Virus record (IMG/VR): IMGVR_UViG_3300043466_002653
Coordinates: 1 to 54,275 of that record
Source of the DNA: a virus
Length of the DNA: 54,275 nt
Strand: one strand, 5' to 3'
Under the pieces are notes generated by a model, which worked only from the letters and a program-made list of their open reading frames with translations, made no database searches and was not told the origin of the DNA. This document shows positions 3,044-13,890 of this stretch, one piece after another (position 1 is the first letter of the stretch; each line of letters opens with the position of its first letter). Made by a program: the position numbers and the translations under genes.

Positions 3044-3044
3044 A

Positions 3045-3323
3045 CTATAAAGTATACGGGTTCGTGTTGATTTTTACAACTTCACGGGGTGTGACCTTGC
3101 TCACATCTAAAGAGTCTATGGCTATACCTGTCTGACTCTTAAACTCATCTAACATTTCTATAGTGTCAATGGTTGGAGATACCGTGGCATCTTCCCAAGA
3201 GATTAATGTCACATGGGATGAGGCCTGGCAAATGCAGGCGGGATCAATCTCAGGACTAACACACGCAGTAACCTCTATAAGAGCATCACAGGTATTACAT
3301 ACATAGATATACTTAGTCCACAT
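3045..3323 (-). CDS. Small zinc-ribbon-like protein
   Basis: A 92-residue protein with CNTC near residue 9 and a later CVS...CIC cluster, consistent with a split zinc ribbon. The N-terminus (YVCNTCDALIEV) resembles the 41-residue microprotein at 10797-10922. The TAATG overlap at 3323 fixes the start. Confidence 0.75.
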   Translation of the reverse strand: MWTKYIYVCNTCDALIEVTACVSPEIDPACICQASSHVTLISWEDATVSPTIDTIEMLDEFKSQTGIAIDSLDVSKVTPREVVKINTNPYTL

Positions 3324-3859: not shown

Positions 3860-3883
3860 GAGCAGTTTTCAATCATGCTCAGG
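3860..3883. repeat. GAGCAGTTT...CATGCTCAGG element, copy 1
   Basis: GAGCA and TGCTC can pair around a loop. In the leftward transcript it separates the DUF932-like gene from the tRNA. Four other copies occur at leftward operon ends. Confidence 0.6.
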
Positions 3884-3892
3884 ATTTTTTTG

Positions 3893-4909
3893 TTATGCTA
3901 AAGACATAACATTTTGCACAACTTTTAGCAAACGATTTTTTTCTGCATTGATAGCAGGGTCAAAACCACTTGCAGATGCAAGGATTGACTCGTTAGAACC
4001 ACCACGAGCAGAACGGTACCAGTCAAGGCGTTCTGTAAGTGCATTGAAAGCACCCCACGCATTACCAGCAATCATACCATTGAACTCGCCTGTGTAAATA
4101 TCATTTACCATGTCGATTTTATTTTCCCATTTCTTGAAAGCACCCTTAGAGTCTTTTTCAGGCTTAGGATATGAGGCGAGCAAAATGTCATTGAATGACT
4201 TAGCACTTACCTCTTTTTCAATCATAGCCTTTGCCATGATGTCGAATTCGTCCATGTACTTATTAGCCATGCCAAGAGTTTCACGAGCAATCGCAACTTT
4301 ACCAGATGCGGTCTGAGTGTGACGAATCTTGAATGATTGCTTGATGCCATTCTTTTTCTTGATTGAACCAAGAGCAAGATTGAGAGTGTTAGCGCATACA
4401 ACACGAACAGGTGTAATGCTTGCTTGAATTGCAATCGAACCGTCATGTGATGTGTTGATGAGCAAATAAGTTTTGACCTTATCTGCAACACCTGAAGGGT
4501 CAAGAATTGTTTCACGCTCTAATGCAAGAGCACCGAATACAACACGACCACCCTTGATAGAGCCAGCGGTTTCCCAACGACCACCACCGTCAAGGATATT
4601 ATCACCGAATGAGAATAAATCTTCATTCTGCATTACATGGTAACGCTCACCCACGACACCAAGAATGTCGGTCTGAGAATTATCTGTAGGGTTAGTGCGA
4701 AGAACATACTGATAGTTCTTGTCGCTTGTGAGATGTGTAGGGGTTTCCAAATCTTCCAGACGAACATTCCAACCATTGAGGCTTGCTGCCTCTAACATTT
4801 CTGAGGTTGATTTTTCTTCTGTAAATACGGTACCCAATCCATGCCAAGCGGGTTCACGGAAAGATGCGAATGATGCCTTGCCGTTTTGTGTTTCGATGTC
4901 ATGTGCCAT
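3893..4909 (-). CDS. DUF932 (TIGR03299-like) phage/plasmid protein
   Basis: A 338-residue protein whose start (SFASFREPAWHGLGTVF) and overall pattern (LGVVGERYHVMQNEDLFSF, AGSIKGGRVVFGALALE, TYLLINTSHDGSIAIQASITPVRVVCANTLNLAL) fit the DUF932 family, also annotated as phage/plasmid-like protein TIGR03299. These proteins are common in phages and plasmids and their biochemical role is unknown. The length is normal for the family. It has its own promoter (4942-4970) behind a CRP-like site and DnaA box, and is followed by the tRNA. Confidence 0.85.
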   Translation of the reverse strand: MAHDIETQNGKASFASFREPAWHGLGTVFTEEKSTSEMLEAASLNGWNVRLEDLETPTHLTSDKNYQYVLRTNPTDNSQTDILGVVGERYHVMQNEDLFSFGDNILDGGGRWETAGSIKGGRVVFGALALERETILDPSGVADKVKTYLLINTSHDGSIAIQASITPVRVVCANTLNLALGSIKKKNGIKQSFKIRHTQTASGKVAIARETLGMANKYMDEFDIMAKAMIEKEVSAKSFNDILLASYPKPEKDSKGAFKKWENKIDMVNDIYTGEFNGMIAGNAWGAFNALTERLDWYRSARGGSNESILASASGFDPAINAEKNRLLKVVQNVMSLA

Positions 4910-4941: not shown

Positions 4942-4970
4942 AGTATAGCAGGACGGACTGACATATGCAA
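4942..4970 (-). promoter_or_regulatory. Leftward promoter, TGTCAG class
   Basis: TTGCAT, 17-base spacer beginning A-TGTCAG and ending TGC (extended -10), TATACT. Upstream of the DUF932-like gene. Confidence 0.65.
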
Positions 4971-5010: not shown

Positions 5011-5026
5011 CGTGATCTTAATCACA
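5011..5026. promoter_or_regulatory. CRP/GlxR-like palindrome
   Basis: CGTGATCTTAATCACA matches TGTGA-N6-TCACA with one mismatch. It is centred about 83 bases upstream of the predicted transcription start of the DUF932-like gene. Confidence 0.6.
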
Positions 5027-5039
5027 CATCTTAAATGGG

Positions 5040-5056
5040 CGTGTCGGCTTGACAAA
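5040..5056. promoter_or_regulatory. GTGTCG-CTTGACA motif
   Basis: CGTGTCGGCTTGACAAA, one of four full copies of an intergenic motif (others at 7287, 12724, 13811). Its complement contains TGTCAAG, a core also present in stoperators of cluster A mycobacteriophages. Function here is unproven. Confidence 0.5.
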
Positions 5057-5057
5057 G

Positions 5058-5066
5058 TTATCCACA
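5058..5066 (+). promoter_or_regulatory. DnaA box
   Basis: Perfect TTATCCACA directly after the GTGTCG-CTTGACA motif, followed by CCCCCTAGG. Confidence 0.6.
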
Positions 5067-5094
5067 GGCCCCCTAGGAAATTTCAATAAAGAAT

Positions 5095-5120
5095 GAGCAG
5101 TTTACGTGGCCATGCTCAGG
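5095..5120. repeat. GAGCAGTTT...CATGCTCAGG element, copy 2
   Basis: Located about 50 bases after the stop of the leftward gene ending at 5170. Confidence 0.6.
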
Positions 5121-5169
5121 GCCCTTACCCAGTTTAGAGACTTTTGGTATGTCTATTAGTAGCCCCCTA

Positions 5170-5598
5170 CTAAAAATCAATTCTATCAACTGTAGCGCTA
5201 AGCCAAGTGATGTTGTCAGAATTATATGACACTGATTCAAAATCAATATCATTTATAATTGATTCTGTATCTTCGTCGTGAGGTACCTGCAGTGTTAGGT
5301 TGTAAGTTACAGTAACTTCAACTTCAACTTCTTGTATTAGTTCAAATCCGCAGATATTAGAAATTGCTTCGGCTTGTGATTCTGTTATATCTCCGTCGCG
5401 CAATTCGGAAAGAGTCCACTCTTGCATGTCGTTACGCATTTTGTTTATCTCTCCAGCGGTTGCATAGTCACGCTGTGTGATACGCTGAATGTGCTCATCT
5501 TTACTTTTGACTATTTCTTCAAGATTAGTAATTTGTCCTTGAAGAAATTCTGTTGTTGCAGTTATTACTGTTGGATATGATGTTTCCATGCGGTCCAT
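5170..5598 (-). CDS. Phage protein, coiled-coil N-half
   Basis: A 142-residue protein. Residues ~12-60 are helical and heptad-like (TEFLQGQITNLEEIVKSKDEHIQRI...). The C-terminal half is rich in strands (VEVEVTVTYNLTLQVP...). No family recognised. AGAGG lies at a suitable distance from the ATG at 5598. A promoter of the TGTCAG class (5630-5658) overlaps the end of the upstream gene. Confidence 0.75.
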   Translation of the reverse strand: MDRMETSYPTVITATTEFLQGQITNLEEIVKSKDEHIQRITQRDYATAGEINKMRNDMQEWTLSELRDGDITESQAEAISNICGFELIQEVEVEVTVTYNLTLQVPHDEDTESIINDIDFESVSYNSDNITWLSATVDRIDF

Positions 5599-5629
5599 AG
5601 GGGCCTCTTTCTATTTGTTGGTTAGTATA

Positions 5630-5658
5630 ATTATATCGCGGGGTACTGACAAATGCCA
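5630..5658 (-). promoter_or_regulatory. Leftward promoter, TGTCAG class
   Basis: TGGCAT, 17-base spacer containing TGTCAG (5646-5651), TATAAT. Confidence 0.6.
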
Positions 5659-5659
5659 G

Positions 5660-6157
5660 TTACCAAGATGATGAATAGTAGAATGATAGATTATCTACTT
5701 CAGGTAAAGCAAAGATACGCTTCAACTGAGTAACGGTACTTTCTAAATCTCTCCAATACCATTCATCAATATCTGTGCCACCAAAGAAAAATCCTGCTTG
5801 TGGTGGTAGTAGTGTTGGGTCCTTGGATTCAAGTGCGTGTTCACAGATAACCATTAGTTCTGTTAGTTTATCTTGTGGAACATAGTACTCACCGCAGTTG
5901 TCCTCACCCTTTTGAATATTAGTAACAAACCAGTTATGTATCTGATTAGCCTTGCGCCAATAGGCACAGGTAACCTCTACGGTTGCTCCATAAATATCTG
6001 TAGCAACATCCGTGAGTTGAGTCAACTCTAATAGGTCATTGAATTTTGGATAGACGGCTTCGGGTGAGTTGTAAGATAACTCATCATTGGACTGTAGCGC
6101 TTTCCAGTTTATTTTTTCTAAGTGCTTTCGTGCGTTGAGATACATATCTAATCCCAT
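5660..6157 (-). CDS. Conserved phage protein beginning MGLDMYL
   Basis: A 165-residue protein beginning MGLDMYLNARKH, an opening found in a widespread phage and bacterial protein group of unknown function, with a central CAYWRKANQIHNWFV segment rich in aromatic and His residues. An AGGAGCCCC sequence precedes the start. It has its own promoter at 6185-6213. I cannot assign a reaction. Confidence 0.75.
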   Translation of the reverse strand: MGLDMYLNARKHLEKINWKALQSNDELSYNSPEAVYPKFNDLLELTQLTDVATDIYGATVEVTCAYWRKANQIHNWFVTNIQKGEDNCGEYYVPQDKLTELMVICEHALESKDPTLLPPQAGFFFGGTDIDEWYWRDLESTVTQLKRIFALPEVDNLSFYYSSSW

Positions 6158-6184
6158 TGGGGCTCCTTCTTGTTGTTTATACTA

Positions 6185-6213
6185 AGTATAACAGGGGGGT
6201 CTGACAAATGCAA
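6185..6213 (-). promoter_or_regulatory. Leftward promoter, TGTCAG class
   Basis: TTGCAT, 17-base spacer T-TGTCAG-ACCCCCCTGT, TATACT. The poly-C spacer is shared with the promoters at 12588 and 13623. Confidence 0.65.
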
Positions 6214-6376
6214 TTCCCTTGCGGGGAGCCTTTTTGGATCATACTCAGGATCATCATCTCAGGCATACCCACGCATCATGGCCTGGGGCTTAGCAGAGAT
6301 GAAACTTAGTAAGCAGTTTAGCGACATACTCAGGTCGTTTATTCCCGTGTACCTCAATTAGAGGTGTATAGGAAAG
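6214..6376. other. Gap with CTCAGG words, no leftward gene
   Basis: No gene fits the leftward operon here. CATACTCAGG/CATCTCAGG words occur three times (about 6239, 6252, 6325), matching the right half of the GAGCA element. A weak plus-strand reading frame crosses it, but I do not consider it coding. Confidence 0.4.
6312..6334. repeat. Degenerate GAGCAGTTT...CATACTCAGG element
   Basis: AGCAGTTT then CATACTCAGG, like the other copies, but the two arms no longer pair. The sequence, not only the hairpin, seems conserved. Confidence 0.45.
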
Positions 6377-6799
6377 TTATAGGTAACGGGCTACCGCTTG
6401 ATAAGTTGATGTGGAAACTGTTTCCTCATCTGTCATCTTTAGGATACGAATTGCGTTGCCAATTTCCTCTTTTTGGTTATTGTATTCGTGCTTGTGGATT
6501 GTATCAAAATCCTTCTCAGGCTCAGCAGGGAAATTAGAATCACTACCGACAATATCAAAATCAACATTGAGAGTCTTGTTCCATGAACGATAGTTCGTTC
6601 TGATGTTCTCAGCCTTTGAGAAATGGGCAATAGCATAGTTTGCTAATTCTGTCTGCCATGCCTTGTATGCTTCTTGATACTTTGCTTCTTTTGCTTCTTG
6701 TGATACAAAGTCAAGTTCTAACTTATTTAGTGATTGTGTGAGTGCGTCAATTACACGCTGAGTAGGTATTTTTACTGAGATTGCTTTTCCTCTTGCCAT
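6377..6799 (-). CDS. Phage protein, unknown function
   Basis: A 140-residue, Lys/Glu-rich, mostly helical protein (MARGKAISVKIPTQRVIDALTQSLNKLE..., then EAKEAKYQEAYKAWQTEL). The end (STSTYQAVARYL) is short and ordered. A basic N-terminus might bind nucleic acid, but this is only a guess. AGAGAA lies upstream of the start. The GAGCA element (6847-6870) separates it from the upstream gene. Confidence 0.75.
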   Translation of the reverse strand: MARGKAISVKIPTQRVIDALTQSLNKLELDFVSQEAKEAKYQEAYKAWQTELANYAIAHFSKAENIRTNYRSWNKTLNVDFDIVGSDSNFPAEPEKDFDTIHKHEYNNQKEEIGNAIRILKMTDEETVSTSTYQAVARYL

Positions 6800-6846
6800 C
6801 TGTTTTTCTCTTTTCTGTTGTGGGATATTTGTTAGGGGGTTGTGTT

Positions 6847-6870
6847 GAGCAGTTTTGTATCATGCTCAGG
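6847..6870. repeat. GAGCAGTTT...CATGCTCAGG element, copy 3
   Basis: Between the stop at 6898 and the start at 6799 of two leftward genes. GAGCA/TGCTC can pair. Confidence 0.6.
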
Positions 6871-6897
6871 ATAGTTGCTTTAGCGTTATTGCTAAAC

Positions 6898-7062
6898 TTA
6901 CTTTGCCGTCCAAGTTGTGTAACGGGCTGAACCATTTACATCTAACTTGACTCGTACATTACCATTAGCCTGTGGTGTGATTTCTTGGATTGTTCCAGTT
7001 ACCTTTGACTTCTGAGTTGTGTAGAGGTCGCCGACCTTGTATGTTGCTGTTGCTACTGACAT
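6898..7062 (-). CDS. 54-residue SH3-like beta protein
   Basis: A small gene (MSVATATYKVGDLYTTQKSK...) whose sequence reads as a string of short strands with a YKVGD turn, GTIQEITP and VRVKLDVNG, typical of small SH3-like barrels. AAAGAGAA is upstream and two promoters follow. Function unknown. Confidence 0.65.
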   Translation of the reverse strand: MSVATATYKVGDLYTTQKSKVTGTIQEITPQANGNVRVKLDVNGSARYTTWTAK

Positions 7063-7105
7063 TATTTTCTCTTTTCTGTTTAGTGGTTATTTTTTCTTAT
7101 ACCTA

Positions 7106-7135
7106 AGTATAACATTTTGTAGATAAAAATGTCAA
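7106..7135 (-). promoter_or_regulatory. Leftward promoter P1
   Basis: TTGACA, 18-base spacer ending TGT, TATACT; upstream of the gene starting at 7062. Confidence 0.6.
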
Positions 7136-7212
7136 ATTGGAATCTGACATTTCTCACATACTGAGATTACTTTGGGGTCTTGATTTATGTTACGCTATTT
7201 AGTTATAGTATA

Positions 7213-7241
7213 ATTTTAGCAGAAAAATGTCATAAATGCAA
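7213..7241 (-). promoter_or_regulatory. Leftward promoter P2
   Basis: TTGCAT, 17-base spacer containing ATGACA and ending TGC, TAAAAT; a TATACT six bases further down is an alternative -10. It lies about 100 bases upstream of P1. Confidence 0.5.
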
Positions 7242-7261
7242 ATCCTGGGGGGGTTCTGGGG

Positions 7262-7277
7262 TGTGACCTTAATTACA
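7262..7277. promoter_or_regulatory. CRP/GlxR-like palindrome
   Basis: TGTGACCTTAATTACA, one mismatch from TGTGA-N6-TCACA. The surrounding ~45 bases resemble those around the site at 5011. Confidence 0.5.
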
Positions 7278-7286
7278 TCTTAAAGG

Positions 7287-7305
7287 CGTGTCTAAACTTG
7301 ACAAA
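7287..7305. promoter_or_regulatory. GTGTC-CTTGACA motif
   Basis: CGTGTCTAAACTTGACAAA, a variant copy with two extra bases, followed by a GCCCTAGGGC palindrome near 7318. Confidence 0.45.
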
Positions 7306-7333
7306 TCAACATTTTTGCCCTAGGGCCCCTTAG

Positions 7334-7402
7334 TTACAAGGGACTTGCAAAAATAGAATATAAAAATATTGCAGTTAGAAATAAAATAATTACATCACCC
7401 AT
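7334..7402 (-). CDS. Possible 22-residue membrane peptide
   Basis: A tiny frame (MGDVIILFLTAIFLYSIFAS...) directly after the GP88-like gene. It is almost wholly hydrophobic and could be one transmembrane helix. No clear ribosome-binding site is present, so it may be chance. Confidence 0.25.
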   Translation of the reverse strand: MGDVIILFLTAIFLYSIFASPL

Positions 7403-7408
7403 TACATC

Positions 7409-8149
7409 TCATTTCTTAGTCGCAGAAAAAACTATGTCTGCTTTAGAGTATACACACAATGAGCAAGAAACGCAAGCCGAGCCATTAGTTGAGATAAGTG
7501 GAATTTGCTTATTGTTTTCAGGACACTTAGCGCCAGGTCTTCCCGTTAGTGCTTTCATGTCTGCCTGGCCTATTTCAAAATTCTTGGCAAGGTATGCTAA
7601 CTTTATGCCGTGATCCATTTTGAGTTCAATACCCTCATCCTTATTCTCGCTATCAGTAGAATAGTATAGTGAGAGATTAGGTTGGTCTTTTAGCATAAGT
7701 GCTGCAGACTTTACACGAGTGTATACCCAGAATTGAACATCACGGTAATCCATGATTACTTGCTTCCATGCATAGGCATATGTATCATTGAAGAAGTCAC
7801 CGTCCCAGTGAATACGGAATAGCATAGGTGCGTCTTTCTTTGCACAATCTTTGATAAAATCTACTATCATTTCTTTTAGTAGTGCGACCATAGTTTCATA
7901 GTCTGCGTCTTTTAGCAAGGCCCAGTTATGGAGCAGATTAGTTTTTACTCCTGGGAATATCTTTTCCAATTTGCCTGCGTAGCAAACAGTTTCGCAGATA
8001 GACGTTGCACCAGGACATGAATAGGCCTTTCCTGCAGGTAGTCCGAAGGTATTGGCAATTGCGGCTTGCTTTCCATTTTTTGTGACAAGGTTAGCCACCT
8101 TTCTATCGTTGGAGCGTTTTAGTTTTAGAGTAATTGTATTAGTAGTCAA
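7409..8149 (-). CDS. GP88-like Cys-rich phage protein
   Basis: A 246-residue protein with an N-terminal CPGAT-x2-C-x3-CYAGK cluster (about residues 45-57) and a C-terminal CPENN...CVSCSLC cluster. It also has LFRIHWDGDFF and FWVYTRV segments. This pattern matches the 'gene product 88' family of actinobacteriophages as I remember it. The cysteines could hold a metal or Fe-S cluster; activity unknown. The start is TTG at 8149, overlapping the stop of the upstream gene by 11 bases; no ATG is available nearby. Confidence 0.75.
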   Translation of the reverse strand: MTTNTITLKLKRSNDRKVANLVTKNGKQAAIANTFGLPAGKAYSCPGATSICETVCYAGKLEKIFPGVKTNLLHNWALLKDADYETMVALLKEMIVDFIKDCAKKDAPMLFRIHWDGDFFNDTYAYAWKQVIMDYRDVQFWVYTRVKSAALMLKDQPNLSLYYSTDSENKDEGIELKMDHGIKLAYLAKNFEIGQADMKALTGRPGAKCPENNKQIPLISTNGSACVSCSLCVYSKADIVFSATKK

Positions 8150-8327
8150 GTCCGAGGCTCATTTCTAATGCGATATCTTCATTATAGGTTGCAGACATTT
8201 CTTCAAGTACGCAATGGGTGCATTTTTCTTCATACTCATCTACTGAGTTTTCTTTACATTCAGGGCAGGTTGTTGCATAGTATTCGTCATAGTTTTCGTC
8301 ATAGAATTCATCTGCGATATTTCCCAT
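8139..8327 (-). CDS. Small acidic zinc-ribbon protein
   Basis: A 62-residue protein with CPEC and CTHC (about residues 21-24 and 36-39) within a very acidic sequence, and an LEEM tail like the protein at 1881-2312. GGAGAA lies upstream of the start. It overlaps the GP88-like gene. Confidence 0.75.
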   Translation of the reverse strand: MGNIADEFYDENYDEYYATTCPECKENSVDEYEEKCTHCVLEEMSATYNEDIALEMSLGLDY

Positions 8328-8331
8328 GGGG

Positions 8332-8478
8332 CTATTCTCCTTTTTGTTGATATTTCAATTGTAGCATTTGGGTCTGACATTTCTTACGGTTGTAAGTTTT
8401 TTTAGAGGGCACAGAAGATGCAGCGTTGCTACGGCGTAATTCCATAAGCCTACGTAATTCCTCTGGATTTTTCTTCAT
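8332..8478 (-). CDS. 48-residue basic microprotein, leaderless
   Basis: MKKNPEELRRLMELRRSN... then SKKTYNRKKC..., strongly basic and helical, so nucleic-acid binding is plausible. The ATG lies six bases after TAAGAT of the promoter at 8485-8514, and the Shine-Dalgarno of the next gene sits at its 3' end. A TGTCAG promoter-like string at 8358-8379 falls inside it. Confidence 0.6.
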   Translation of the reverse strand: MKKNPEELRRLMELRRSNAASSVPSKKTYNRKKCQTQMLQLKYQQKGE

Positions 8479-8484
8479 AGAATA

Positions 8485-8514
8485 ATCTTAGCATACATGG
8501 ATAAAAAATGTCAA
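8485..8514 (-). promoter_or_regulatory. Leftward promoter
   Basis: TTGACA, 18-base spacer ending TGC, TAAGAT, six bases before the ATG at 8478. Confidence 0.6.
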
Positions 8515-8523
8515 ATCTTAAAA

Positions 8524-8539
8524 TGTGATAAATCTCACA
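8524..8539. promoter_or_regulatory. CRP/GlxR-like palindrome
   Basis: TGTGATAAATCTCACA, a perfect TGTGA-N6-TCACA, centred about 53 bases upstream of the predicted start at 8478. CGACACGC (8541-8548) and TGCCTAGGCA (about 8557) follow. Confidence 0.65.
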
Positions 8540-8603
8540 CCGACACGCTAGGTAAATTGCCTAGGCATTTTTGTGCGGGGAAGCACACAAAAAATACTTT
8601 TAT

Positions 8604-8849
8604 TTATTCTTCTTCATGTTCTACGAATACATATAACTTGAATACATGTTCGTAGTTACATTCAAATACATCTTCCTCACCATATTCATTACGATAAGTA
8701 ATTGTATAATTATCTCCAGTAGAATCATCTACAATTGATATTACATCAACAATAGAGCCTTCAATCTCTACGAGATCATCTTCCATTAGTTGTGCTGGCG
8801 TGAGTAAATCTGCATATACCAATTCCATAAGGTTTATTGTATCAGACAT
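8604..8849 (-). CDS. Acidic beta-rich phage protein
   Basis: An 81-residue protein with strands (EIEGSIVDVISIVDD, NYTITYRNEYG, HVFKLYVFVEHEEE) and a net negative charge. No family recognised. It ends the operon that begins upstream of 10166, and its ATG follows the stop of the previous gene directly. Confidence 0.75.
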   Translation of the reverse strand: MSDTINLMELVYADLLTPAQLMEDDLVEIEGSIVDVISIVDDSTGDNYTITYRNEYGEEDVFECNYEHVFKLYVFVEHEEE

Positions 8850-8993
8850 TTAGATCCCTTCATTGTCAAAATCAAGTAAGACTTCATTACAGTTTTCGCA
8901 TTCAATTGCGATATTTTGCTGGTCACCATAGATAGCAACATCTAAGGAATGTCCGTAGTGATCTGCTAATTCGTTATAGGTTTGTACGCTCAT
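8850..8993 (-). CDS. 47-residue microprotein with CxxC
   Basis: MSVQTYNELADHYGHSLDVA... with CENC near residue 32 and an acidic end. The stop abuts the next ATG (TAA-ATG) and the start shares bases with the stop of the upstream gene, so the operon register is exact. Function unknown. Confidence 0.7.
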   Translation of the reverse strand: MSVQTYNELADHYGHSLDVAIYGDQQNIAIECENCNEVLLDFDNEGI

Positions 8994-9277
8994 TAGTCCT
9001 CCCATTCAGGAAGCCAAAATTCCAAGTGGTGTTGTTCAATAATAGCCCTTGCAGGTGCTTGCGTACTTCCACGATATAGAATCTGAAAGTCACCAACCTT
9101 TGGCATGTCAATCATGCGGTCATAGTCCTCATCATAGTATGCGTCAATTGCTTCAATGCAAGGGGCTACCATTTCTGCGGGTACGGGAGGATAGTGATTA
9201 CCCTTCAAGTGATATAGAATCTGAGTTTCTAAGTCCAATACTGTATCCTGTATTCCTAACGCTGTTACACTTCCCAT
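8993..9277 (-). CDS. Phage protein, unknown function
   Basis: A 94-residue protein (MGSVTALGIQDTVLDLETQ...) with a helical N-half, an acidic centre (YYDEDYDRMIDMPKVGDFQ) and an aromatic end. The ATG at 9277 has GGAGAACG upstream and a TAATG overlap. An in-frame longer start exists but would run into the upstream gene. Confidence 0.7.
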   Translation of the reverse strand: MGSVTALGIQDTVLDLETQILYHLKGNHYPPVPAEMVAPCIEAIDAYYDEDYDRMIDMPKVGDFQILYRGSTQAPARAIIEQHHLEFWLPEWED

Positions 9278-9435
9278 TATTCGTTCTCCTCTGATTCGTC
9301 TACCCATTCTACATATTCGTCATTATCTATTTCCATTAGGTTGGTATAGATTATTAGTTGTCCATAGTTATCCTGTTGTATATCATAGTCTGGCGCTATC
9401 TTTGCAAGTGCCGTTCTGAATTCATATCCGTTCAT
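9277..9435 (-). CDS. 52-residue acidic microprotein
   Basis: MNGYEFRTALAKIAPDYDIQ... ending in a run of Asp/Glu (VEWVDESEENE). It is coupled at both ends (ATGA with the upstream gene, TAATG with the downstream one). Function unknown. Confidence 0.7.
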   Translation of the reverse strand: MNGYEFRTALAKIAPDYDIQQDNYGQLIIYTNLMEIDNDEYVEWVDESEENE

Positions 9436-9647
9436 ACTTTTACTACAACCCTTCCGTCACGATAAAATAATTTAGTATACATTTTGCCTGTTGGCGTTGA
9501 GATATTGACTGTTCGATATTCGTTAGCCATTCCCCAGTCGGTGAATCGGAAAAAACTTTCCCATGCACCAAACTCATTTTCATAGCGTTGTGTCCAATGA
9601 GGAGCGTGTCCGTCATATGCACTTGTTACTGCGTATTCGTATTCCAT
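9432..9647 (-). CDS. Aromatic-rich small protein
   Basis: A 71-residue protein rich in Tyr, Trp and Phe (HAPHWTQRYENEFGAWESFFRF), predicted beta at the end (TKLFYRDGRVVVKV). Start and stop overlap the neighbouring genes. No family recognised. Confidence 0.75.
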   Translation of the reverse strand: MEYEYAVTSAYDGHAPHWTQRYENEFGAWESFFRFTDWGMANEYRTVNISTPTGKMYTKLFYRDGRVVVKV

Positions 9648-9790
9648 TAGTTAGCCTCTTTCGTTGTAAATAATGCGCCTTCATTTAGTAAGCCCAATTC
9701 AATATTGAATAATTCATCGGGTGTTGCAGACTCTAAGTCTACCCACCCTGCACCGTCTTTGTCAATTCTAAATATCTCTATATATCCCAT
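9647..9790 (-). CDS. 47-residue microprotein
   Basis: MGYIEIFRIDKDGAGWVDLE..., a strand-turn-helix pattern. TAATG overlaps on both sides. Function unknown. Confidence 0.7.
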   Translation of the reverse strand: MGYIEIFRIDKDGAGWVDLESATPDELFNIELGLLNEGALFTTKEAN

Positions 9791-9951
9791 TATTGTTCCT
9801 CACAATTCTTTGTATAATCAAACTCACAATAGTAACAACCCATGAATTCTAAGTGTTCTTCACAATAGTACTTGAATTGACTTTCATCGCAACAAAAAAA
9901 CTGTTCATCTGATACTTCATAGAATTCTGTTTTATCAATTATATTCAACAT
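9790..9951 (-). CDS. 53-residue Cys-rich microprotein
   Basis: MLNIIDKTEFYEVSDEQFFC... with six to seven cysteines (CC, C, CYYC, C) and a His, fitting a compact zinc-binding fold. TAATG overlaps on both sides. Function unknown. Confidence 0.7.
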   Translation of the reverse strand: MLNIIDKTEFYEVSDEQFFCCDESQFKYYCEEHLEFMGCYYCEFDYTKNCEEQ

Positions 9952-10166
9952 TATTCACTTACCTTTACTGCTACTGTGCGATAGGTTCTGCGACCAAAAT
10001 TATTGTATCCGCTATTAGGTGCAACCTCTACAAGATAAGTTTCGCAACCTTGATACCATATACCCTTTGGGTGTTTTTCTGCTGAGGTTATCTCACCTTG
10101 CAGAGTGCGTGAGTTGTAATTTGTTCCTATGAGTAGGTCTTGTATTGTATATACATTTGCTGACAT
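9951..10166 (-). CDS. Small beta-rich protein, first of operon
   Basis: A 71-residue protein with strands TYLVEVAPNSG and RTYRTVAVKVSE. It opens the operon running to 8604, with AGAGG upstream and a promoter at 10200-10228. No family recognised. Confidence 0.75.
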   Translation of the reverse strand: MSANVYTIQDLLIGTNYNSRTLQGEITSAEKHPKGIWYQGCETYLVEVAPNSGYNNFGRRTYRTVAVKVSE

Positions 10167-10199
10167 TTGCCAACCTCTTTCTTTTTGTTTATATAAATA

Positions 10200-10228
10200 A
10201 TCTTAGCATATGCGACTGACATTTTCAC
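10200..10228 (-). promoter_or_regulatory. Leftward promoter, TGTCAG class
   Basis: TAAGAT with extended TGC, and TGTCAG at the standard 10-base distance (10216-10221). The -35 (GTGAAA) is weak. Confidence 0.5.
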
Positions 10229-10269
10229 ATTACTTGCCAGTAATTCCACATAGTAAGACGCTCAAACTC

Positions 10270-10285
10270 TGTGAGAAAAATCACA
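10270..10285. promoter_or_regulatory. CRP/GlxR-like palindrome
   Basis: TGTGAGAAAAATCACA, perfect half-sites, about 84 bases upstream of the predicted start for the operon beginning at 10166. Confidence 0.65.
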
Positions 10286-10297
10286 TTCAACGTAAGG

Positions 10298-10306
10298 TTA
10301 TCCACA
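10298..10306 (+). promoter_or_regulatory. DnaA box
   Basis: Perfect TTATCCACA, followed by CCTGTGGA, so TCCACA/TGTGGA form an inverted repeat. CGACACGC (10316-10323) and CGCCTAGCG follow. Confidence 0.6.
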
Positions 10307-10347
10307 GCCTGTGGACGACACGCTAGATGATCGCCTAGCGAAAATTT

Positions 10348-10371
10348 GAGCAGTTTGAAATCTTGCTCAGG
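10348..10371. repeat. GAGCAGTTT...CTTGCTCAGG element, copy 4
   Basis: Just after the stop of the leftward gene at 10387; GAGCA/TGCTC can pair. Confidence 0.6.
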
Positions 10372-10386
10372 ATTTATTTTTATTTT

Positions 10387-10572
10387 TTATTTTTCTGCAA
10401 GTTCTTGTATATAACATGCATTTTTGAAAGTCATTGGATTGAATCTTGGATTGTCAGATAAAAACATATCTGAAAAATCATAGACCAAATCCTCAAAAGC
10501 AAATTTTTCAATTAGACTTGAATAATTGCTTAGAATTTCAGCAGTTGCGACATAGTCTTTTCGTGTCATCAT
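10387..10572 (-). CDS. 61-residue phage protein
   Basis: MMTRKDYVATAEILSNYSSL..., a helical protein with alternating acidic and aromatic residues (FAFEDLVYDFSDMFLSDNPRF). This layout is common among small early actinophage proteins, but I know no function for it. It lies one base after the upstream gene. Confidence 0.7.
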   Translation of the reverse strand: MMTRKDYVATAEILSNYSSLIEKFAFEDLVYDFSDMFLSDNPRFNPMTFKNACYIQELAEK

Positions 10573-10573
10573 T

Positions 10574-10780
10574 TTATTTTGCCACCTTTAGAATTGCGTA
10601 TGAGCCATTTTTATTTATTTCATCTATAGCAGGCTGAATCATTGGTGCAAGCAATTCTTTTAGCATACCTTCAAGCAATTCAATACGCATTGACTCTGAG
10701 ATAGCCATAAGTTGTTTCCCTACTGGGTGAGTTTCGTCTACTTCTGTGATGAACTTTAGATTGTGTTCTACTTTTACCAT
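10574..10780 (-). CDS. 68-residue helical protein
   Basis: I start it at MVKVEHNLKF (ATG at 10780), preceded by AAAGGACAG, not at an upstream in-frame codon. Residues ~25-60 are amphipathic helix (SESMRIELLEGMLKELLAPM...). No family recognised. Confidence 0.7.
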   Translation of the reverse strand: MVKVEHNLKFITEVDETHPVGKQLMAISESMRIELLEGMLKELLAPMIQPAIDEINKNGSYAILKVAK

Positions 10781-10796
10781 TTTTATCTGTCCTTTG

Positions 10797-10922
10797 TTAG
10801 TTGTTTGTTTTTGAAAGTTGCACACATTGGCATTGTGTTATATTTATTGTATCAGTACCGACTGACACGATAGCAAGGGTATCGCAATTATCGCATATCC
10901 ACATTCCCGCAATCTGTTGCAT
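10797..10922 (-). CDS. 41-residue zinc-ribbon microprotein
   Basis: MQQIAGMWICDNCDTLAIVS... with CDNC and CQC clusters, a minimal zinc ribbon. TAATG overlap with the upstream gene supports translation. A promoter-like TGTCAG...TACAAT string (about 10846-10867) falls inside the frame. Confidence 0.65.
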   Translation of the reverse strand: MQQIAGMWICDNCDTLAIVSVGTDTINITQCQCVQLSKTNN

Positions 10923-11107
10923 TATAGAGTTGCCTTTCCTCTAAGTGTTCCACGAACGCCGAGAGCGTCGCAAGATACTTTTACCGCAACGCCTACAGGG
11001 AGTTGAGTTGGATAAGTTGAGATGAATTGAGCAACCGCACCTTTTGAGGGCATGTCAATCTTTTTTGTTGAACCTGAAAAGGTTTCAAGGATTATAGTGT
11101 AAGTCAT
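10922..11107 (-). CDS. VSCDALG-family small protein, copy A
   Basis: A 61-residue protein (MTYTIILETFSGSTKKIDMP...) with a conserved FxGSTK start and a VSCDALGVRGTLRG end. It is a paralogue of the 58-residue protein at 11808-11984. No known family. It has its own promoter at 11144-11172. Confidence 0.75.
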   Translation of the reverse strand: MTYTIILETFSGSTKKIDMPSKGAVAQFISTYPTQLPVGVAVKVSCDALGVRGTLRGKATL

Positions 11108-11143
11108 TTAGTGACTTCCTTTCGTAGTTTGTTTATATTATCT

Positions 11144-11172
11144 ATTATAGCATTTTGGACTGACAATATCAA
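11144..11172 (-). promoter_or_regulatory. Leftward promoter, TGTCAG class
   Basis: TTGATA, 17-base spacer T-TGTCAG...TGC, TATAAT. Confidence 0.65.
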
Positions 11173-11203
11173 ATCCAAATTCGGACATTTAGGACATTAG
11201 GAA

Positions 11204-11219
11204 TGTGACGTTGGTCACT
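11204..11219. promoter_or_regulatory. CRP/GlxR-like palindrome
   Basis: TGTGACGTTGGTCACT, one mismatch. It touches the stop codon of the gene 11218-11397. CGGACAT lies about 15 bases away on the promoter side. Confidence 0.55.
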
Positions 11220-11397
11220 ATCGAGAGATAGTCCATTTTGACCACATATCCATACGGTCACCGTCAAATTCTAACCAAAATCTTTCGATATTAGTTTCGC
11301 ATACCTCACAAAAGGTATATTGCTCATCTCTTACATTTGAGATAGCAGGGATATGAGGTGTATGTTCTTGACATACTGTAGTTTTTAGTGAATTCAT
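11218..11397 (-). CDS. MNSL-family Cys protein, copy A
   Basis: A 59-residue protein (MNSLKTTVCQEHTPHIPAIS...) with C9, H12 and a CEVC pair, so probably zinc-binding. It ends in a Trp-rich WSKW segment. It is a paralogue of the 61-residue protein at 13162-13347, sharing MNSL, EHTP/ETHTP, AISN, QxTFC, NIER and WSKW. AGGAATTC precedes the start, as in the paralogue. Confidence 0.75.
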   Translation of the reverse strand: MNSLKTTVCQEHTPHIPAISNVRDEQYTFCEVCETNIERFWLEFDGDRMDMWSKWTISR

Positions 11398-11448
11398 TTT
11401 GAATTCCTTTCTTTATTGATAACCTTTATCAATTTTCTTTATACGAGA

Positions 11449-11477
11449 AGTATAGCATAAAAATGTCAAAAAGTCAA
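11449..11477 (-). promoter_or_regulatory. Leftward promoter
   Basis: TTGACT, 17-base spacer containing TTGACA and ending TGC, TATACT. Confidence 0.65.
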
Positions 11478-11508
11478 ATCGACACGCCGTAAATCAGGGG
11501 AATAATCG

Positions 11509-11524
11509 TGTGATTCGTATCACA
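11509..11524. promoter_or_regulatory. CRP/GlxR-like palindrome (perfect)
   Basis: TGTGATTCGTATCACA, perfect TGTGA-N6-TCACA, centred about 74 bases upstream of the predicted start. CGACACGC (11480-11487) lies on the promoter side. Confidence 0.7.
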
Positions 11525-11528
11525 TTAG

Positions 11529-11537
11529 TTATGCACA
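11529..11537 (+). promoter_or_regulatory. DnaA box, variant
   Basis: TTATGCACA fits TTATNCACA. It faces the perfect box at 11544-11552. Confidence 0.45.
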
Positions 11538-11543
11538 TCACCC

Positions 11544-11552
11544 TGTGGATAA
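11544..11552 (-). promoter_or_regulatory. DnaA box
   Basis: TGTGGATAA (TTATCCACA on the minus strand), followed by GCCTAGCG. Confidence 0.6.
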
Positions 11553-11569
11553 CTTTTGCCTAGCGTTTT

Positions 11570-11662
11570 TCATTCGCCTTTCACGAATAAAAAAGATCCA
11601 CTTAGTAAGCAAATCATAGAGAACCAAAACAATGCGCTACCGCTTGAAAAAAAGTTATTCAT
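11570..11662 (-). CDS. 30-residue membrane peptide
   Basis: MNNFFSSGSALFWFSMICLL... with one hydrophobic helix and a short Lys/Glu tail. Its ATG overlaps the stop of the upstream small membrane protein as TAATG, so it is probably the last gene of that operon. Confidence 0.5.
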   Translation of the reverse strand: MNNFFSSGSALFWFSMICLLSGSFLFVKGE

Positions 11663-11808
11663 TAAATATCAAATCCTAAAAAATAAAATAAAAAATTAAA
11701 TAACATTATTAGTGAAAGAATATTATTTTCAATCACCGCTGGATCTGTTGCACTATCTAACCAAGTTAAATATTCGTTAATGCTTTCGATTAGTCCGTGT
11801 ATGTTCAT
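11662..11808 (-). CDS. 48-residue small membrane protein
   Basis: MNIHGLIESINEYLTWLDSA... has a soluble N-half and a hydrophobic C-terminal helix (LIMLFNFLFYFLGF). I start it at the ATG overlapping the upstream stop (TAATG). It is followed by another single-helix peptide; the pair might act together at the membrane. Function unknown. Confidence 0.65.
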   Translation of the reverse strand: MNIHGLIESINEYLTWLDSATDPAVIENNILSLIMLFNFLFYFLGFDI

Positions 11809-11984
11809 TATTTGTTTCCTTTCAAGTGACCTGATATTCCAAGGGCATCGCAAGATACCTGCAACACTACTGATTTAGGTAGTGCATTACTGAGTGCGCT
11901 CATGTACATAGCGACATCTAACGGGGTATTGAAAGGCATAGCCTTAGTGCTACCATTGAAGGTAGTTAGTTTTAGTGTTATCAT
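11808..11984 (-). CDS. VSCDALG-family small protein, copy B
   Basis: A 58-residue protein (MITLKLTTFNGSTKAMPFNT...) sharing the FxGSTK start, central LP..V and VSCDALGISGHLKG end with the protein at 10922-11107. TAATG overlaps on both sides. Function unknown. Confidence 0.72.
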   Translation of the reverse strand: MITLKLTTFNGSTKAMPFNTPLDVAMYMSALSNALPKSVVLQVSCDALGISGHLKGNK

Positions 11985-12130
11985 TATTTAGACTCCTCTA
12001 CATGAAACGCATTGAATTTAGCGATTTCGTTTTCGCTAAGTGGGTATAGTGATTTGTTTAGAGCGAATACCGCTCTCATCTCATCTTCTGCCTCTACGAC
12101 ATAAGATATAAGCACATTATATTTATTCAT
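11984..12130 (-). CDS. 48-residue microprotein
   Basis: MNKYNVLISYVVEAEDEMRA..., a strand followed by helices. It is coupled by TAATG to both neighbours. Function unknown. Confidence 0.7.
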   Translation of the reverse strand: MNKYNVLISYVVEAEDEMRAVFALNKSLYPLSENEIAKFNAFHVEESK

Positions 12131-12294
12131 TATTTTACTCCTTTATATAAAAAGTCCCAAGCCTTACGGCAAATTAGTATGCTTTCGCAATTATCACAAC
12201 AGATAGAGCCGTGAGGGTTTAGGTTTATATCATATGCATCTACATATGCTATTGTGTTTCCGCAAACGGAATCAAGTGGATAGAGTGTGCTCAT
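12130..12294 (-). CDS. CGxT-family zinc-ribbon protein, copy A
   Basis: A 54-residue protein (MSTLYPLDSVCGNTIAYVDA...) with VCG, then CCDNC...CR, ending RKAWDFLYKGVK. It is a close paralogue of the protein at 12998-13162. Probably zinc-binding, role unknown. TAATG overlaps fix both ends. Confidence 0.72.
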   Translation of the reverse strand: MSTLYPLDSVCGNTIAYVDAYDINLNPHGSICCDNCESILICRKAWDFLYKGVK

Positions 12295-12533
12295 TAGTTA
12301 GCACCTTTCTTTAGTACGGACATGATAGCGACATATCGCTGAGCGATTATTACCGCTTTAGGATTCAGGGTAGAGTTGAATCTACCTTGTGAATAGTCGC
12401 TTGGGTATTTGTTAGCAATACGCTGAGCGATACGAGTAGGGAGAACATTGGTAGGGCGTGGAGAGTATCCACCTGCCTCTAAACCAAATTCGAGGGCAAT
12501 ATCCTTGCGGATACTTTCGTTATAGTGAGTCAT
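12294..12533 (-). CDS. 79-residue basic protein
   Basis: MTHYNESIRKDIALEFGLEA... with a Pro/Arg-rich centre (YSPRPTNVLPTRIAQRIANKYP) and net positive charge. It could bind DNA as a small helical protein, but I recognise no family. AAAGGAGTC precedes the start. It opens the operon running to 11570. Confidence 0.75.
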   Translation of the reverse strand: MTHYNESIRKDIALEFGLEAGGYSPRPTNVLPTRIAQRIANKYPSDYSQGRFNSTLNPKAVIIAQRYVAIMSVLKKGAN

Positions 12534-12550
12534 ATTTGACTCCTTTCTTT

Positions 12551-12569
12551 AGCGGAATTCTTTACCGCT
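12551..12569 (-). other. 5' leader hairpin
   Basis: AGCGG/CCGCT stem in the untranslated leader, between the -10 (12588) and the Shine-Dalgarno of the gene starting at 12533. Confidence 0.4.
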
Positions 12570-12587
12570 TGTTTTCTTTATATATAC

Positions 12588-12616
12588 ATTATAGCAGGGG
12601 GGTCTGACATATTGAG
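12588..12616 (-). promoter_or_regulatory. Leftward promoter, TGTCAG class
   Basis: TATAAT with extended TGC, and TGTCAGACCCCCC upstream (12604-12609). The -35 hexamer (CTCAAT) is weak. Confidence 0.55.
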
Positions 12617-12643
12617 GGGTACAAATTATACTAAAACGGACAT

Positions 12644-12659
12644 TGTGAGATTAGTCACA
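12644..12659. promoter_or_regulatory. CRP/GlxR-like palindrome (perfect)
   Basis: TGTGAGATTAGTCACA, directly after AAAACGGACAT (12633-12643) and followed by a second GTCACA half-site, about 70 bases upstream of the predicted start. Confidence 0.65.
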
Positions 12660-12723
12660 TGAGATGTAGGTCACATTTTCCAGGGGAATTATAACATTTA
12701 CATAACAATATTAAAACTATCGG

Positions 12724-12738
12724 TGTGTCGACTTGACA
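12724..12738. promoter_or_regulatory. GTGTCGACTTGACA motif
   Basis: TGTGTCGACTTGACA, followed by CCCTAG and ACCTAGC words. Confidence 0.5.
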
Positions 12739-12800
12739 CGAGCCCTAGTAGATCACCTAGCAAATTTTGCATAGTGTTTAGTTATGCAAAACTTTTTTAT

Positions 12801-12998
12801 TTATCTTTTTATCATTTCTTTTGCATTTTCTAAAATAGATAATTGTTCACGAAACGATTTTGCAATTTCGTTTTGTTGTTCTTCTGTAAGTGTTGTCCAC
12901 ACATAACCAAGAAGATAGTGTGTGCCACTATCAGCATTGCCATAGCGAATTTCTGTAGACATTTTGCGAATGTCTGCAAGTAGTTGCATATCTTTCAT
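12801..12998 (-). CDS. 65-residue helical protein
   Basis: MKDMQLLADIRKMSTEIRYG..., helix-rich with a YLLGYVWTTLTEEQQNEI core. I start it at the ATG overlapping the upstream stop as TAATG. Function unknown. Confidence 0.72.
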   Translation of the reverse strand: MKDMQLLADIRKMSTEIRYGNADSGTHYLLGYVWTTLTEEQQNEIAKSFREQLSILENAKEMIKR

Positions 12999-13162
12999 TA
13001 TTTTACTCCTTTGTATAAAAAATCCCATGCCTTACGGCAGATTAAAATTGAGCGACAGTTATCGCAACAGATAGACCCGTTAGGGTTGAGGTTGAAGTCA
13101 TATGAATCAACGAATGTATGTGTCTTTCCACATACTGAATCAAGACGAATTAGTGTAGTCAT
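12998..13162 (-). CDS. CGxT-family zinc-ribbon protein, copy B
   Basis: A 54-residue paralogue of 12130-12294 (MTTLIRLDSVCGKTHTFVDS...). It keeps VCG, CCDNC, ICRKAWDFLYKGVK and the same length. I start it at the internal Met overlapping the upstream stop. Confidence 0.73.
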   Translation of the reverse strand: MTTLIRLDSVCGKTHTFVDSYDFNLNPNGSICCDNCRSILICRKAWDFLYKGVK

Positions 13163-13347
13163 TATTCTGATACCTTCCATTTAGACCATGGAGCATATGG
13201 GTTTGACGAATCAGCCCAACGCTCGATATTTTGTTCACACTCTGTGCAGAATGTGAATTGCTCATCGAAACACATATTGTATGTGTTAGAGATAGCGGAC
13301 ATTTGAGGTGTATGCGTTTCGCATACTATTGTATTTAGTGAATTCAT
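13162..13347 (-). CDS. MNSL-family Cys protein, copy B
   Basis: A 61-residue paralogue of 11218-11397 (MNSLNTIVCETHTPQMSAIS...) with CTEC and a WSKWKVSE end. AAGGAATTC lies upstream of the ATG at 13347. A longer in-frame reading would overlap the upstream gene by 100 bases and is rejected. Confidence 0.73.
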   Translation of the reverse strand: MNSLNTIVCETHTPQMSAISNTYNMCFDEQFTFCTECEQNIERWADSSNPYAPWSKWKVSE

Positions 13348-13363
13348 GTTGAATTCCTTTCTA

Positions 13364-13567
13364 TTAGTTAAAGTGATAGTTGCAGATATTAGTTTCTGCA
13401 TTGTTGATAAGGACAAGGTGAGATGAAACAGGAGATGTGCAATCTGCAATCTCACACTTTCCACCTAAATATGAATCGTGGATATCGCAACCATATCCAT
13501 CGCAATATGAATCTTCACACTCAATAGACCAATCGGCTTGAGGTGTTATGTCAATTAGTGAAGTCAT
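13364..13567 (-). CDS. 67-residue Cys-rich protein
   Basis: MTSLIDITPQADWSIECEDS... with seven cysteines and several His/Asp residues (YCDGYGCDIHDSYLGGKCEIADC), a likely zinc-binding module. It is the first gene of the rightmost leftward mini-operon, with AAAGGAAGTC upstream. Confidence 0.72.
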   Translation of the reverse strand: MTSLIDITPQADWSIECEDSYCDGYGCDIHDSYLGGKCEIADCTSPVSSHLVLINNAETNICNYHFN

Positions 13568-13622
13568 TTTGACTTCCTTTCTTTAGTTAGGTTTACTTCT
13601 TTTTCAACCTTCTATATATAGA

Positions 13623-13651
13623 AGTATAGCAGGGGGGTCTGACATCTACTG
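13623..13651 (-). promoter_or_regulatory. Leftward promoter, TGTCAG class
   Basis: TATACT with extended TGC and TGTCAGACCCCCC (13639-13644). The -35 (CAGTAG) is weak. Confidence 0.55.
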
Positions 13652-13660
13652 AGCGGTAAC

Positions 13661-13678
13661 TATGACAAAACGGACATT
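13661..13678. repeat. TATGACAAAACGGACATT repeat, copy 1
   Basis: An 18-base word repeated exactly at 15912-15929. Confidence 0.6.
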
Positions 13679-13684
13679 TTGATT

Positions 13685-13700
13685 TGTGATGTACGCCACA
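13685..13700. promoter_or_regulatory. CRP/GlxR-like site
   Basis: TGTGATGTACGCCACA. The identical 16-mer occurs again at 13746-13761. One mismatch from the palindrome; the central TA fits the actinobacterial GlxR form. Confidence 0.55.
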
Positions 13701-13745
13701 AATTATGACAAGGCTCTGACCTGCACTTATAGGGCGGGGGTCGAA

Positions 13746-13761
13746 TGTGATGTACGCCACA
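13746..13761. promoter_or_regulatory. CRP/GlxR-like site, second copy
   Basis: TGTGATGTACGCCACA, 61 bases after the first copy, in the divergent region between the leftward arm and the first rightward gene. Confidence 0.55.
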
Positions 13762-13796: not shown

Positions 13797-13810
13797 TATG
13801 CGGGTACTGG

Positions 13811-13827
13811 CGTGTCGACTTGACAAA
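13811..13827. promoter_or_regulatory. GTGTCGACTTGACA motif
   Basis: CGTGTCGACTTGACAAA followed by TCGCTAGG. Confidence 0.5.
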
Positions 13828-13890
13828 ATCGCTAGGAGATATGTGCTCACTATATTTTTTAGGTTTTATATACATAAACACGTATCATAC

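What the first reader, a model, noticed from the sequence alone, without database searches (positions are those of the whole stretch)
5011..13761. CRP/GlxR-like palindromes in front of early leftward operons
Nine sites fit TGTGA-N6-TCACA with zero or one mismatch: 5011, 7262, 8524, 10270, 11204, 11509, 12644, 13685, 13746. Four are perfect in both half-sites. They lie about 50-85 bases upstream of predicted starts, the range in which class I CRP activation works. The actinobacterial homologue GlxR uses the same consensus. This would couple early phage expression to host cAMP or carbon state.
Basis: partly seen in the sequence, partly recalled or inferred. Interest (0 to 1): 0.8.

Follow-up and report, generated by a model that had tools for sequence, protein, structure and literature searches.

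The report
CRP-type activator sites at phage promoters
A widespread group of freshwater phages that infect actinobacteria puts a near-perfect copy of the binding site of a bacterial master regulator (CRP/GlxR) at a fixed rotational position in front of most of its early promoters, so the phage very probably uses the host's own regulator to switch on its first genes.

Summary
The window, an IMG/VR phage contig, has 5 perfect and 12 ≤1-mismatch TGTGA-N6-TCACA sites. All lie in the first 14 kb (0.03 and 0.8 expected) and none in the 40 kb late region. Eleven of 12 lie in gaps between genes. The nine listed sites are correct; 3090, 7143 and 12660 were missed.

All 14 relatives of 98-118 kb examined have 3-9 perfect sites (reversed pattern: 0). 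Between orthologues the half-sites differ 5%, the six-base spacer 40% and the flanks 20-23%. The -10 hexamer starts 49, 60, 70 or 80 bp from the site: a 10.5-bp period (non-redundant p~1e-7; window alone p~0.003; control palindromes none). The spacer profile fits GlxR's TGTGANNTANNTCACA.

The phages carry WhiB, which points to actinobacterial hosts. No CRP-family protein was found in 15 phage records, and no tyrosine integrase. I conclude that a host CRP/GlxR-type protein activates these promoters in a class-I-like way.

The claim of coupling to cAMP or carbon state is not supported. The only candidate host family (one binned contig) encodes CRP, but no class III adenylate cyclase was found in 61 genomes, and its chromosomes lack perfect sites. 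The host is not proven and no binding was tested.

The parts
3090..3105 (-). CRP/GlxR-type site, perfect (TGTGAGCAAGGTCACA on the - strand); serves the promoter of leaderless gene 2879-3043; overlaps ORF 3045-3323
   Evidence: identical 16-mer in G001, G006, G010, G011, G012
5011..5026 (-). CRP/GlxR-type site, 1 mismatch, upstream of the DUF932 gene 3893-4909
7143..7158 (-).
7262..7277 (-). CRP/GlxR-type site, 1 mismatch; -10 offset 59
8524..8539 (-). CRP/GlxR-type site, perfect; upstream of the operon with GP88 (7409-8149); -10 offset 49
10270..10285 (-). CRP/GlxR-type site, perfect; -10 offset 80
11204..11219 (-). CRP/GlxR-type site, 1 mismatch; -10 offset 70
11509..11524 (-). CRP/GlxR-type site, perfect; -10 offset 70
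12644..12659 (-). CRP/GlxR-type site, perfect; promoter-proximal member of an abutting pair, out of phase (-10 offset 66)
   Evidence: 16-bp pairs recur
12660..12675 (-). CRP/GlxR-type site, 1 mismatch; promoter-distal member of the pair, in phase (-10 offset 82)
13685..13700 (-). CRP/GlxR-type site, 1 mismatch; -10 offset 72
13746..13761 (-). CRP/GlxR-type site, 1 mismatch, same 16-mer as 13685; -10 offset 133
3051..3056 (-). -10 hexamer TATACT, start codon 13 nt downstream (leaderless)
4942..4947 (-). extended -10 (TGC-TATACT)
7106..7111 (-). extended -10 (TGT-TATACT) with -35 TTGACA at 7130-7135
7213..7218 (-). extended -10 (TGC-TAAAAT)
8485..8490 (-). extended -10 (TGC-TAAGAT), leaderless start at 8478
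10200..10205 (-). extended -10 (TGC-TAAGAT)
11144..11149 (-). extended -10 (TGC-TATAAT)
11449..11454 (-). extended -10 (TGC-TATACT)
12588..12593 (-). extended -10 (TGC-TATAAT)
13623..13628 (-). extended -10 (TGC-TATACT)
5058..5066 (+). perfect DnaA box TTATCCACA next to the 5011 site
10298..10306 (+). perfect DnaA box TTATCCACA next to the 10270 site
11544..11552 (-). perfect DnaA box TTATCCACA next to the 11509 site

Best explanation
The dyads are operators for the CRP/GlxR-type regulator of an actinobacterial host. A dimer bound there recruits host RNA polymerase from upstream, from one face of the helix, in a class-I-like way. It does so at most early leftward promoters of this phage clade, which have an extended -10 (TGN-TANNNT) and usually a weak or absent -35. 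Shown here: the sites, their enrichment, conservation, fixed position and helical phase, and the absence of any detected CRP-family gene in the phage. Inferred: which protein binds, that binding activates, and the order of transcription. Not shown: that cAMP or carbon state tunes it.
For: Enrichment in the window. In 160 related loci: 806 perfect sites at spacer 6 against 0-15 at other spacers from 2 to 11. All 14 relatives of 98-118 kb have 3-9 perfect sites, reversed control 0. Footprint across 6,843 orthologous pairs: half-sites 5% changed, N6 40%, flanks 20-23%. Helical phase: non-redundant sense -10s peak at 49, 59-60, 70 and 79-81, R=0.373, best period 10.45, p=1.3e-7; 746 of 1,053 sites have a sense -10 at 40-110 bp against 211 antisense; control palindromes show no phase. 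Window alone R=0.69, p about 0.002-0.003. Starts are anchored by leaderless ORFs: ATG at 12-13 nt from the -10 in 111 of 138 class-49 promoters. Spacer profile (A after TGTGA only 2%, central T/A) fits GlxR TGTGANNTANNTCACA (PMC4254451). The motif exceeds its control across 120 Actinomycetota genomes. No CRP-family protein in the phages. Upstream CRP sites activate in M. tuberculosis (PMC4117774).
Against: No binding or expression data. Host family not proven: the only lead is one phage contig binned in a MAG. In that family the chromosome has no perfect sites and 1-mismatch sites equal the control, although its CRP carries the SRETVNK recognition helix. The register is about 3 bp off the E. 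coli class I positions (-61.5, -71.5 and so on). The proximal members of the abutting pairs are out of phase (offset 65-66). A Streptomyces relative, Mandalore, is not enriched.
Confidence: 0.72

Rival explanations
1. A phage-encoded activator of another fold (for example Mor-like, which binds 5-bp inverted repeats in a 16-bp element, or a ribbon-helix-helix protein) binds the dyads and activates middle promoters.
For: Position and phase fit any upstream activator. Many small phage proteins are uncharacterised; one gives a marginal Omega_Repress match (E=0.0099) and another weak HTH/sigma region 4 matches (E about 0.001-0.002). Mu Mor binds a comparable 16-bp element near -43.5 (PMC4390567 abstract).
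Against: Consensus, spacer length and spacer preference are those of CRP/GlxR (PMC4254451). No Mor domain turned up in the Pfam scans of most G011 proteins. The phased series of distances is typical of flexible alpha-CTD contact by CRP.
Confidence: 0.14
2. The sites are repressor or silencer operators: host CRP, or a phage repressor, keeps early genes off, as CRP represses T1 promoters.
For: CRP represses T1 pir, dam and recE (PMC6737242). Abutting 16-bp pairs (48 distinct cases) with an out-of-phase member could carry a negative input, as in the tandem activating and inhibitory whiB1 sites cited in PMC4117774.
Against: The dyads lie upstream of the promoter core, not over it, and are phased to it. 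Upstream CRP sites activate in M. tuberculosis, sites near the start repress (PMC4117774). No tyrosine integrase in 15 records, so no sign of lysogeny.
Confidence: 0.07
3. The sites are decoys that titrate host CRP/GlxR away from host genes.
For: Near-perfect and numerous, while the candidate host family has no perfect chromosomal site.
Against: Helical phase to -10 elements and one-promoter-one-site layout. Only about 12 sites per genome copy.
Confidence: 0.04
4. Chance, low-complexity or RNA-hairpin palindromes.
For: 5-bp stems with 6-nt loops could form hairpins.
Against: Enrichment, conservation restricted to half-sites, freely changing loop, phase to promoters and location upstream of transcription starts.
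Confidence: 0.01

Closest known systems
E. coli class I CRP-dependent promoters (lac type)
   Same: TGTGA-N6-TCACA dyad upstream of the promoter core; distances in steps of about 10.5 bp
   Different: Centres near -53.5, -64, -74.5, -85 rather than -61.5, -71.5, -82.5, -92.5; in a phage; extended -10; candidate host family without class III cyclase
GlxR regulon of Corynebacterium glutamicum and CRP(Mt)/Rv3676 regulon of Mycobacterium tuberculosis
   Same: Same consensus including central T/A preference; SRETVNK recognition helix in the candidate host family; upstream site means activation; tandem sites occur
   Different: Chromosomal regulons of about 200 sites, whereas here the targets are phage early promoters and the candidate host chromosome is not enriched
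Phage T1 control by host CRP
   Same: Host CRP acts directly on phage promoters
   Different: Represses pir, dam and recE in a temperate state of a coliphage; here inferred activation of most early promoters in a clade without detected integrase
Mor/MotA-type phage middle promoters
   Same: Dyad or box upstream of a sigma-70 (extended -10) promoter
   Different: Regulator is phage-encoded there; distance fixed rather than helically variable; no Mor domain found here

Membership tests
Class I CRP-dependent promoter | CRP consensus dyad TGTGA-N6-TCACA | tested here: met
Class I CRP-dependent promoter | Site upstream of the core promoter at helically phased distances | tested here: met
   R=0.373, period 10.45, p about 1e-7, controls negative; window alone p about 0.003
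Class I CRP-dependent promoter | E. coli register (-61.5, -71.5, -82.5, -92.5) | tested here: not met
   centres near -53.5, -64, -74.5, -85, anchored by leaderless ATGs; shift about 3 bp. An E. coli-specific value; actinobacterial sites also differ (PMC4117774)
Class I CRP-dependent promoter | Regulator binds and contacts RNAP alpha-CTD | not testable with these tools
   needs EMSA, in vitro transcription, alpha-CTD mutants
GlxR/CRP regulon of Actinomycetota | GlxR consensus TGTGANNTANNTCACA | tested here: met
   against PMC4254451
GlxR/CRP regulon of Actinomycetota | Host carries the regulator | tested here: inconclusive
   phylum supported by WhiB; CRP in 47 of 61 genomes of the candidate family but the family is not proven
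GlxR/CRP regulon of Actinomycetota | cAMP as effector | tested here: inconclusive
   PF00211 in 0 of 61 genomes of the candidate family; other cyclase classes or other hosts not excluded
Phage-encoded CRP-like regulator | CRP-family protein in the phage genome | tested here: not met
   no HTH_Crp_2 in 15 records; no hit of a host CRP HMM in 19,509 phage ORFs, 20 of 20 positive controls
Mor-type phage activator | Mor domain protein | tested here: not met
   not among Pfam families of the G011 proteins scanned; ORFs at chunk borders and some very large ORFs not scanned, and one family was not listed

The most novel reading that the evidence does not exclude
The host belongs to a streamlined actinobacterial lineage that keeps a CRP-type protein but has lost cAMP synthesis and all strong chromosomal sites. 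The phage then has the best CRP sites in the cell and uses the regulator as its own cAMP-independent early activator, together with DnaA boxes set beside the sites.
Probability: 0.15. Interest if true: 0.8.

Novelty: new variant of a known kind. Interest (0 to 1): 0.62.

Why it matters
Host CRP is known to touch a few phage promoters, mostly in lysis-lysogeny decisions of enteric phages. Here a whole clade of common freshwater phages, without a detected integrase, appears to build most of its early promoters around the host's global regulator. That gives a ready set of promoters to test how actinobacterial CRP/GlxR activates transcription (phase, distance, effector), and whether the physiological state of abundant freshwater actinobacteria gates phage infection.

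Tried and rejected
The two-mismatch count gives no signal. Megablast of the early region against known phages: no match. Single-linkage clustering of site contexts collapsed into one cluster because the modules are related; replaced by greedy de-duplication, where a very strict threshold (0.42) leaves p=0.016. Phage-encoded CRP: not found. The first hit for a regulator in the candidate host MAG, L166, was a GntR-like protein, not CRP. Enrichment in Streptomyces phage Mandalore: none. IMG/VR-wide scan for the site plus extended -10: about half the matches are this clade, the others show no positional clustering, so the device is clade-typical, not general. Perfect 16-mers elsewhere in Actinomycetota often have A after TGTGA, which the phage sites avoid, so part of the chromosomal count may belong to another regulator. 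Ortholog spacing at the DUF932 promoter is mostly 78-81; 97-99 also occurs, partly where a second site is present.
Full report
WHAT WAS CHECKED. The window is a 54,275-base IMG/VR virus record, GC 37%. The leftward block (about 1-15.5 kb) holds many small genes, a DUF932 gene and a GP88 gene. The rest is mainly rightward, with tail fibre, ribonucleotide reductase and portal genes. By portal (46-48%) and GP88 (about 53%) it is a distant relative of Streptomyces phages such as Wakanda and Mandalore (Stanwilliamsviridae). Close relatives are very common in viral metagenomes: the two scans gave 411 and 593 confirmed places, of which 80 loci each were kept, on contigs up to about 118 kb.

THE OBSERVATION. 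The full set is 12 sites with <=1 mismatch (5 perfect), all before position 14,000. Models of the same composition give 0.03-0.04 perfect and 0.7-0.9 <=1-mismatch sites, and changing the spacer length removes the signal. Eleven of the 12 lie outside ORFs of at least 60 aa although these cover 64% of the region. The exception, 3090, overlaps ORF 3045-3323 but also sits 49 bp from the -10 of the next gene, and the same 16-mer is kept in five other phages.

CONSERVATION. In 160 related loci (2.68 Mb; some share a contig) there are 806 perfect and 1,543 <=1-mismatch sites at spacer 6, against 0-15 and 26-306 at other spacers from 2 to 11, and far fewer for control palindromes. All 14 longer relatives (98-118 kb) have 3-9 perfect sites, with none for the reversed pattern. 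In the three genomes read in full, most sites lie in one early block. Aligning each perfect site with orthologous DNA of 60-85% flank identity (6,843 pairs), half-sites differ at 5% of positions, the six spacer bases at 40%, flanks at 20-23%. The pairs are not independent and the query site is perfect by choice, but neutral half-sites would drift like the flanks.

POSITION AND PHASE. In the window the -10 hexamer begins 49, 79, 47, 59, 49, 80, 70, 70, 66, 82, 72 and 133 bp from the site start. With the B-DNA period of 10.5 bp fixed in advance this gives R=0.69, p about 0.002-0.003. In relatives, after removing similar promoters, sense-strand -10 elements peak at 49, 59-60, 70 and 79-81, with R=0.373, best period 10.45 and p=1.3e-7. 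Antisense -10s and three control palindromes are not significantly phased. 746 of 1,053 sites have a sense -10 at 40-110 bp against 211 antisense. Homology between promoters is not fully removed: with a very strict threshold p rises to 0.016. In the 49-bp class the start codon lies 12-13 nt from the first base of the -10 in 111 of 138 cases, so these mRNAs are probably leaderless. That fixes the start, and the dyad centres fall near -53.5, -64, -74.5 and -85. The 49-bp class usually has a -35; the 70 and 80 classes usually lack one and carry TGTCAG ending about 10 nt before the extended -10.

WHO BINDS. No CRP-family protein was found in 15 phage records or in 19,509 phage ORFs, and Pfam scans of most proteins of relative G011 show no Mor domain and only marginal DNA-binding hits. 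The spacer profile (A after TGTGA 2%, central T/A) fits GlxR's TGTGANNTANNTCACA (PMC4254451). WhiB, found only in C. glutamicum among the 14 control genomes, is in 14 of 14 near-complete relatives, so the host is very probably an actinobacterium. Across 120 Actinomycetota genomes the motif exceeds its control. In M. tuberculosis upstream CRP sites go with activation (PMC4117774). A host CRP/GlxR-type activator is therefore the best candidate.

The only host lead is one contig (80% identical DUF932) binned in an Actinomycetota MAG; this may be mis-binning. In its family CRP is present in 47 of 61 genomes with the SRETVNK helix and cAMP-pocket residues like GlxR. Yet no class III adenylate cyclase is found in any of 61, and in the genomes tested the chromosome has no perfect site and no excess of 1-mismatch sites. 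Either the host lies elsewhere, or its CRP works with few weak sites and perhaps without cAMP. Coupling to carbon state is therefore unproven.

EXTRA COMPONENTS. 311 of 575 distinct DnaA boxes (TTATCCACA) lie within 150 bp of a CRP-type site, although such stretches are 15% of the sequence; 264 of these are upstream, mostly 10-40 bp from the site start. Abutting pairs of CRP-type sites 16 bp apart recur (48 distinct cases); in the cases looked at, the distal member is in phase and the proximal out of phase. Both could be further inputs; neither is explained.

COMPARISON AND VERDICT. It works like a class I CRP promoter. Membership is held back by the shifted register and by untested binding. 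T1 shows that host CRP can act on phage promoters, as a repressor (PMC6737242). Searches of the open-access library found no report of a phage clade with CRP-type sites at most early promoters; that library lacks most subscription journals.

Noticed in passing
5058-5066, 10298-10306, 11544-11552: Perfect DnaA boxes TTATCCACA sit next to the CRP-type sites; clade-wide 311 of 575 distinct boxes lie within 150 bp of such a site, mostly just upstream.
   Followed up: partly
12644-12675: Two abutting CRP-type dyads 16 bp apart; the arrangement recurs 48 times in relatives. Two dimers could hardly bind at once.
   Followed up: partly
8478-8490, 3043-3056: Early genes with the start codon 12-13 nt from the -10: probably leaderless mRNAs.
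   Followed up: partly
4958-4963 and similar at 10216-10221, 11160-11165, 12604-12609, 13639-13644: TGTCAG at a fixed 16 nt before the first base of extended -10 elements that lack a -35; role unknown, compare the position of the T4 MotA box.
   Followed up: partly
3860-3891, 6226-6257, 6847-6878, 10348-10379: Repeated GAGCA-N11-TGCTC inverted repeats followed by CAGGAT, often 60-120 bp upstream of the CRP-type module.
   Followed up: no
5041-5056, 7287-7305, 10314-10340, 12722-12760, 13809-13840: Recurrent GTGTCGACTTGACA / GACACG elements with nearby CTAG palindromes in the same intergenic spacers.
   Followed up: no
family of G015 (L165, L167-L186): An actinobacterial family with a GlxR-like CRP in 47 of 61 genomes but no class III adenylate cyclase in any and no perfect CRP site in the chromosomes tested.
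   Followed up: partly
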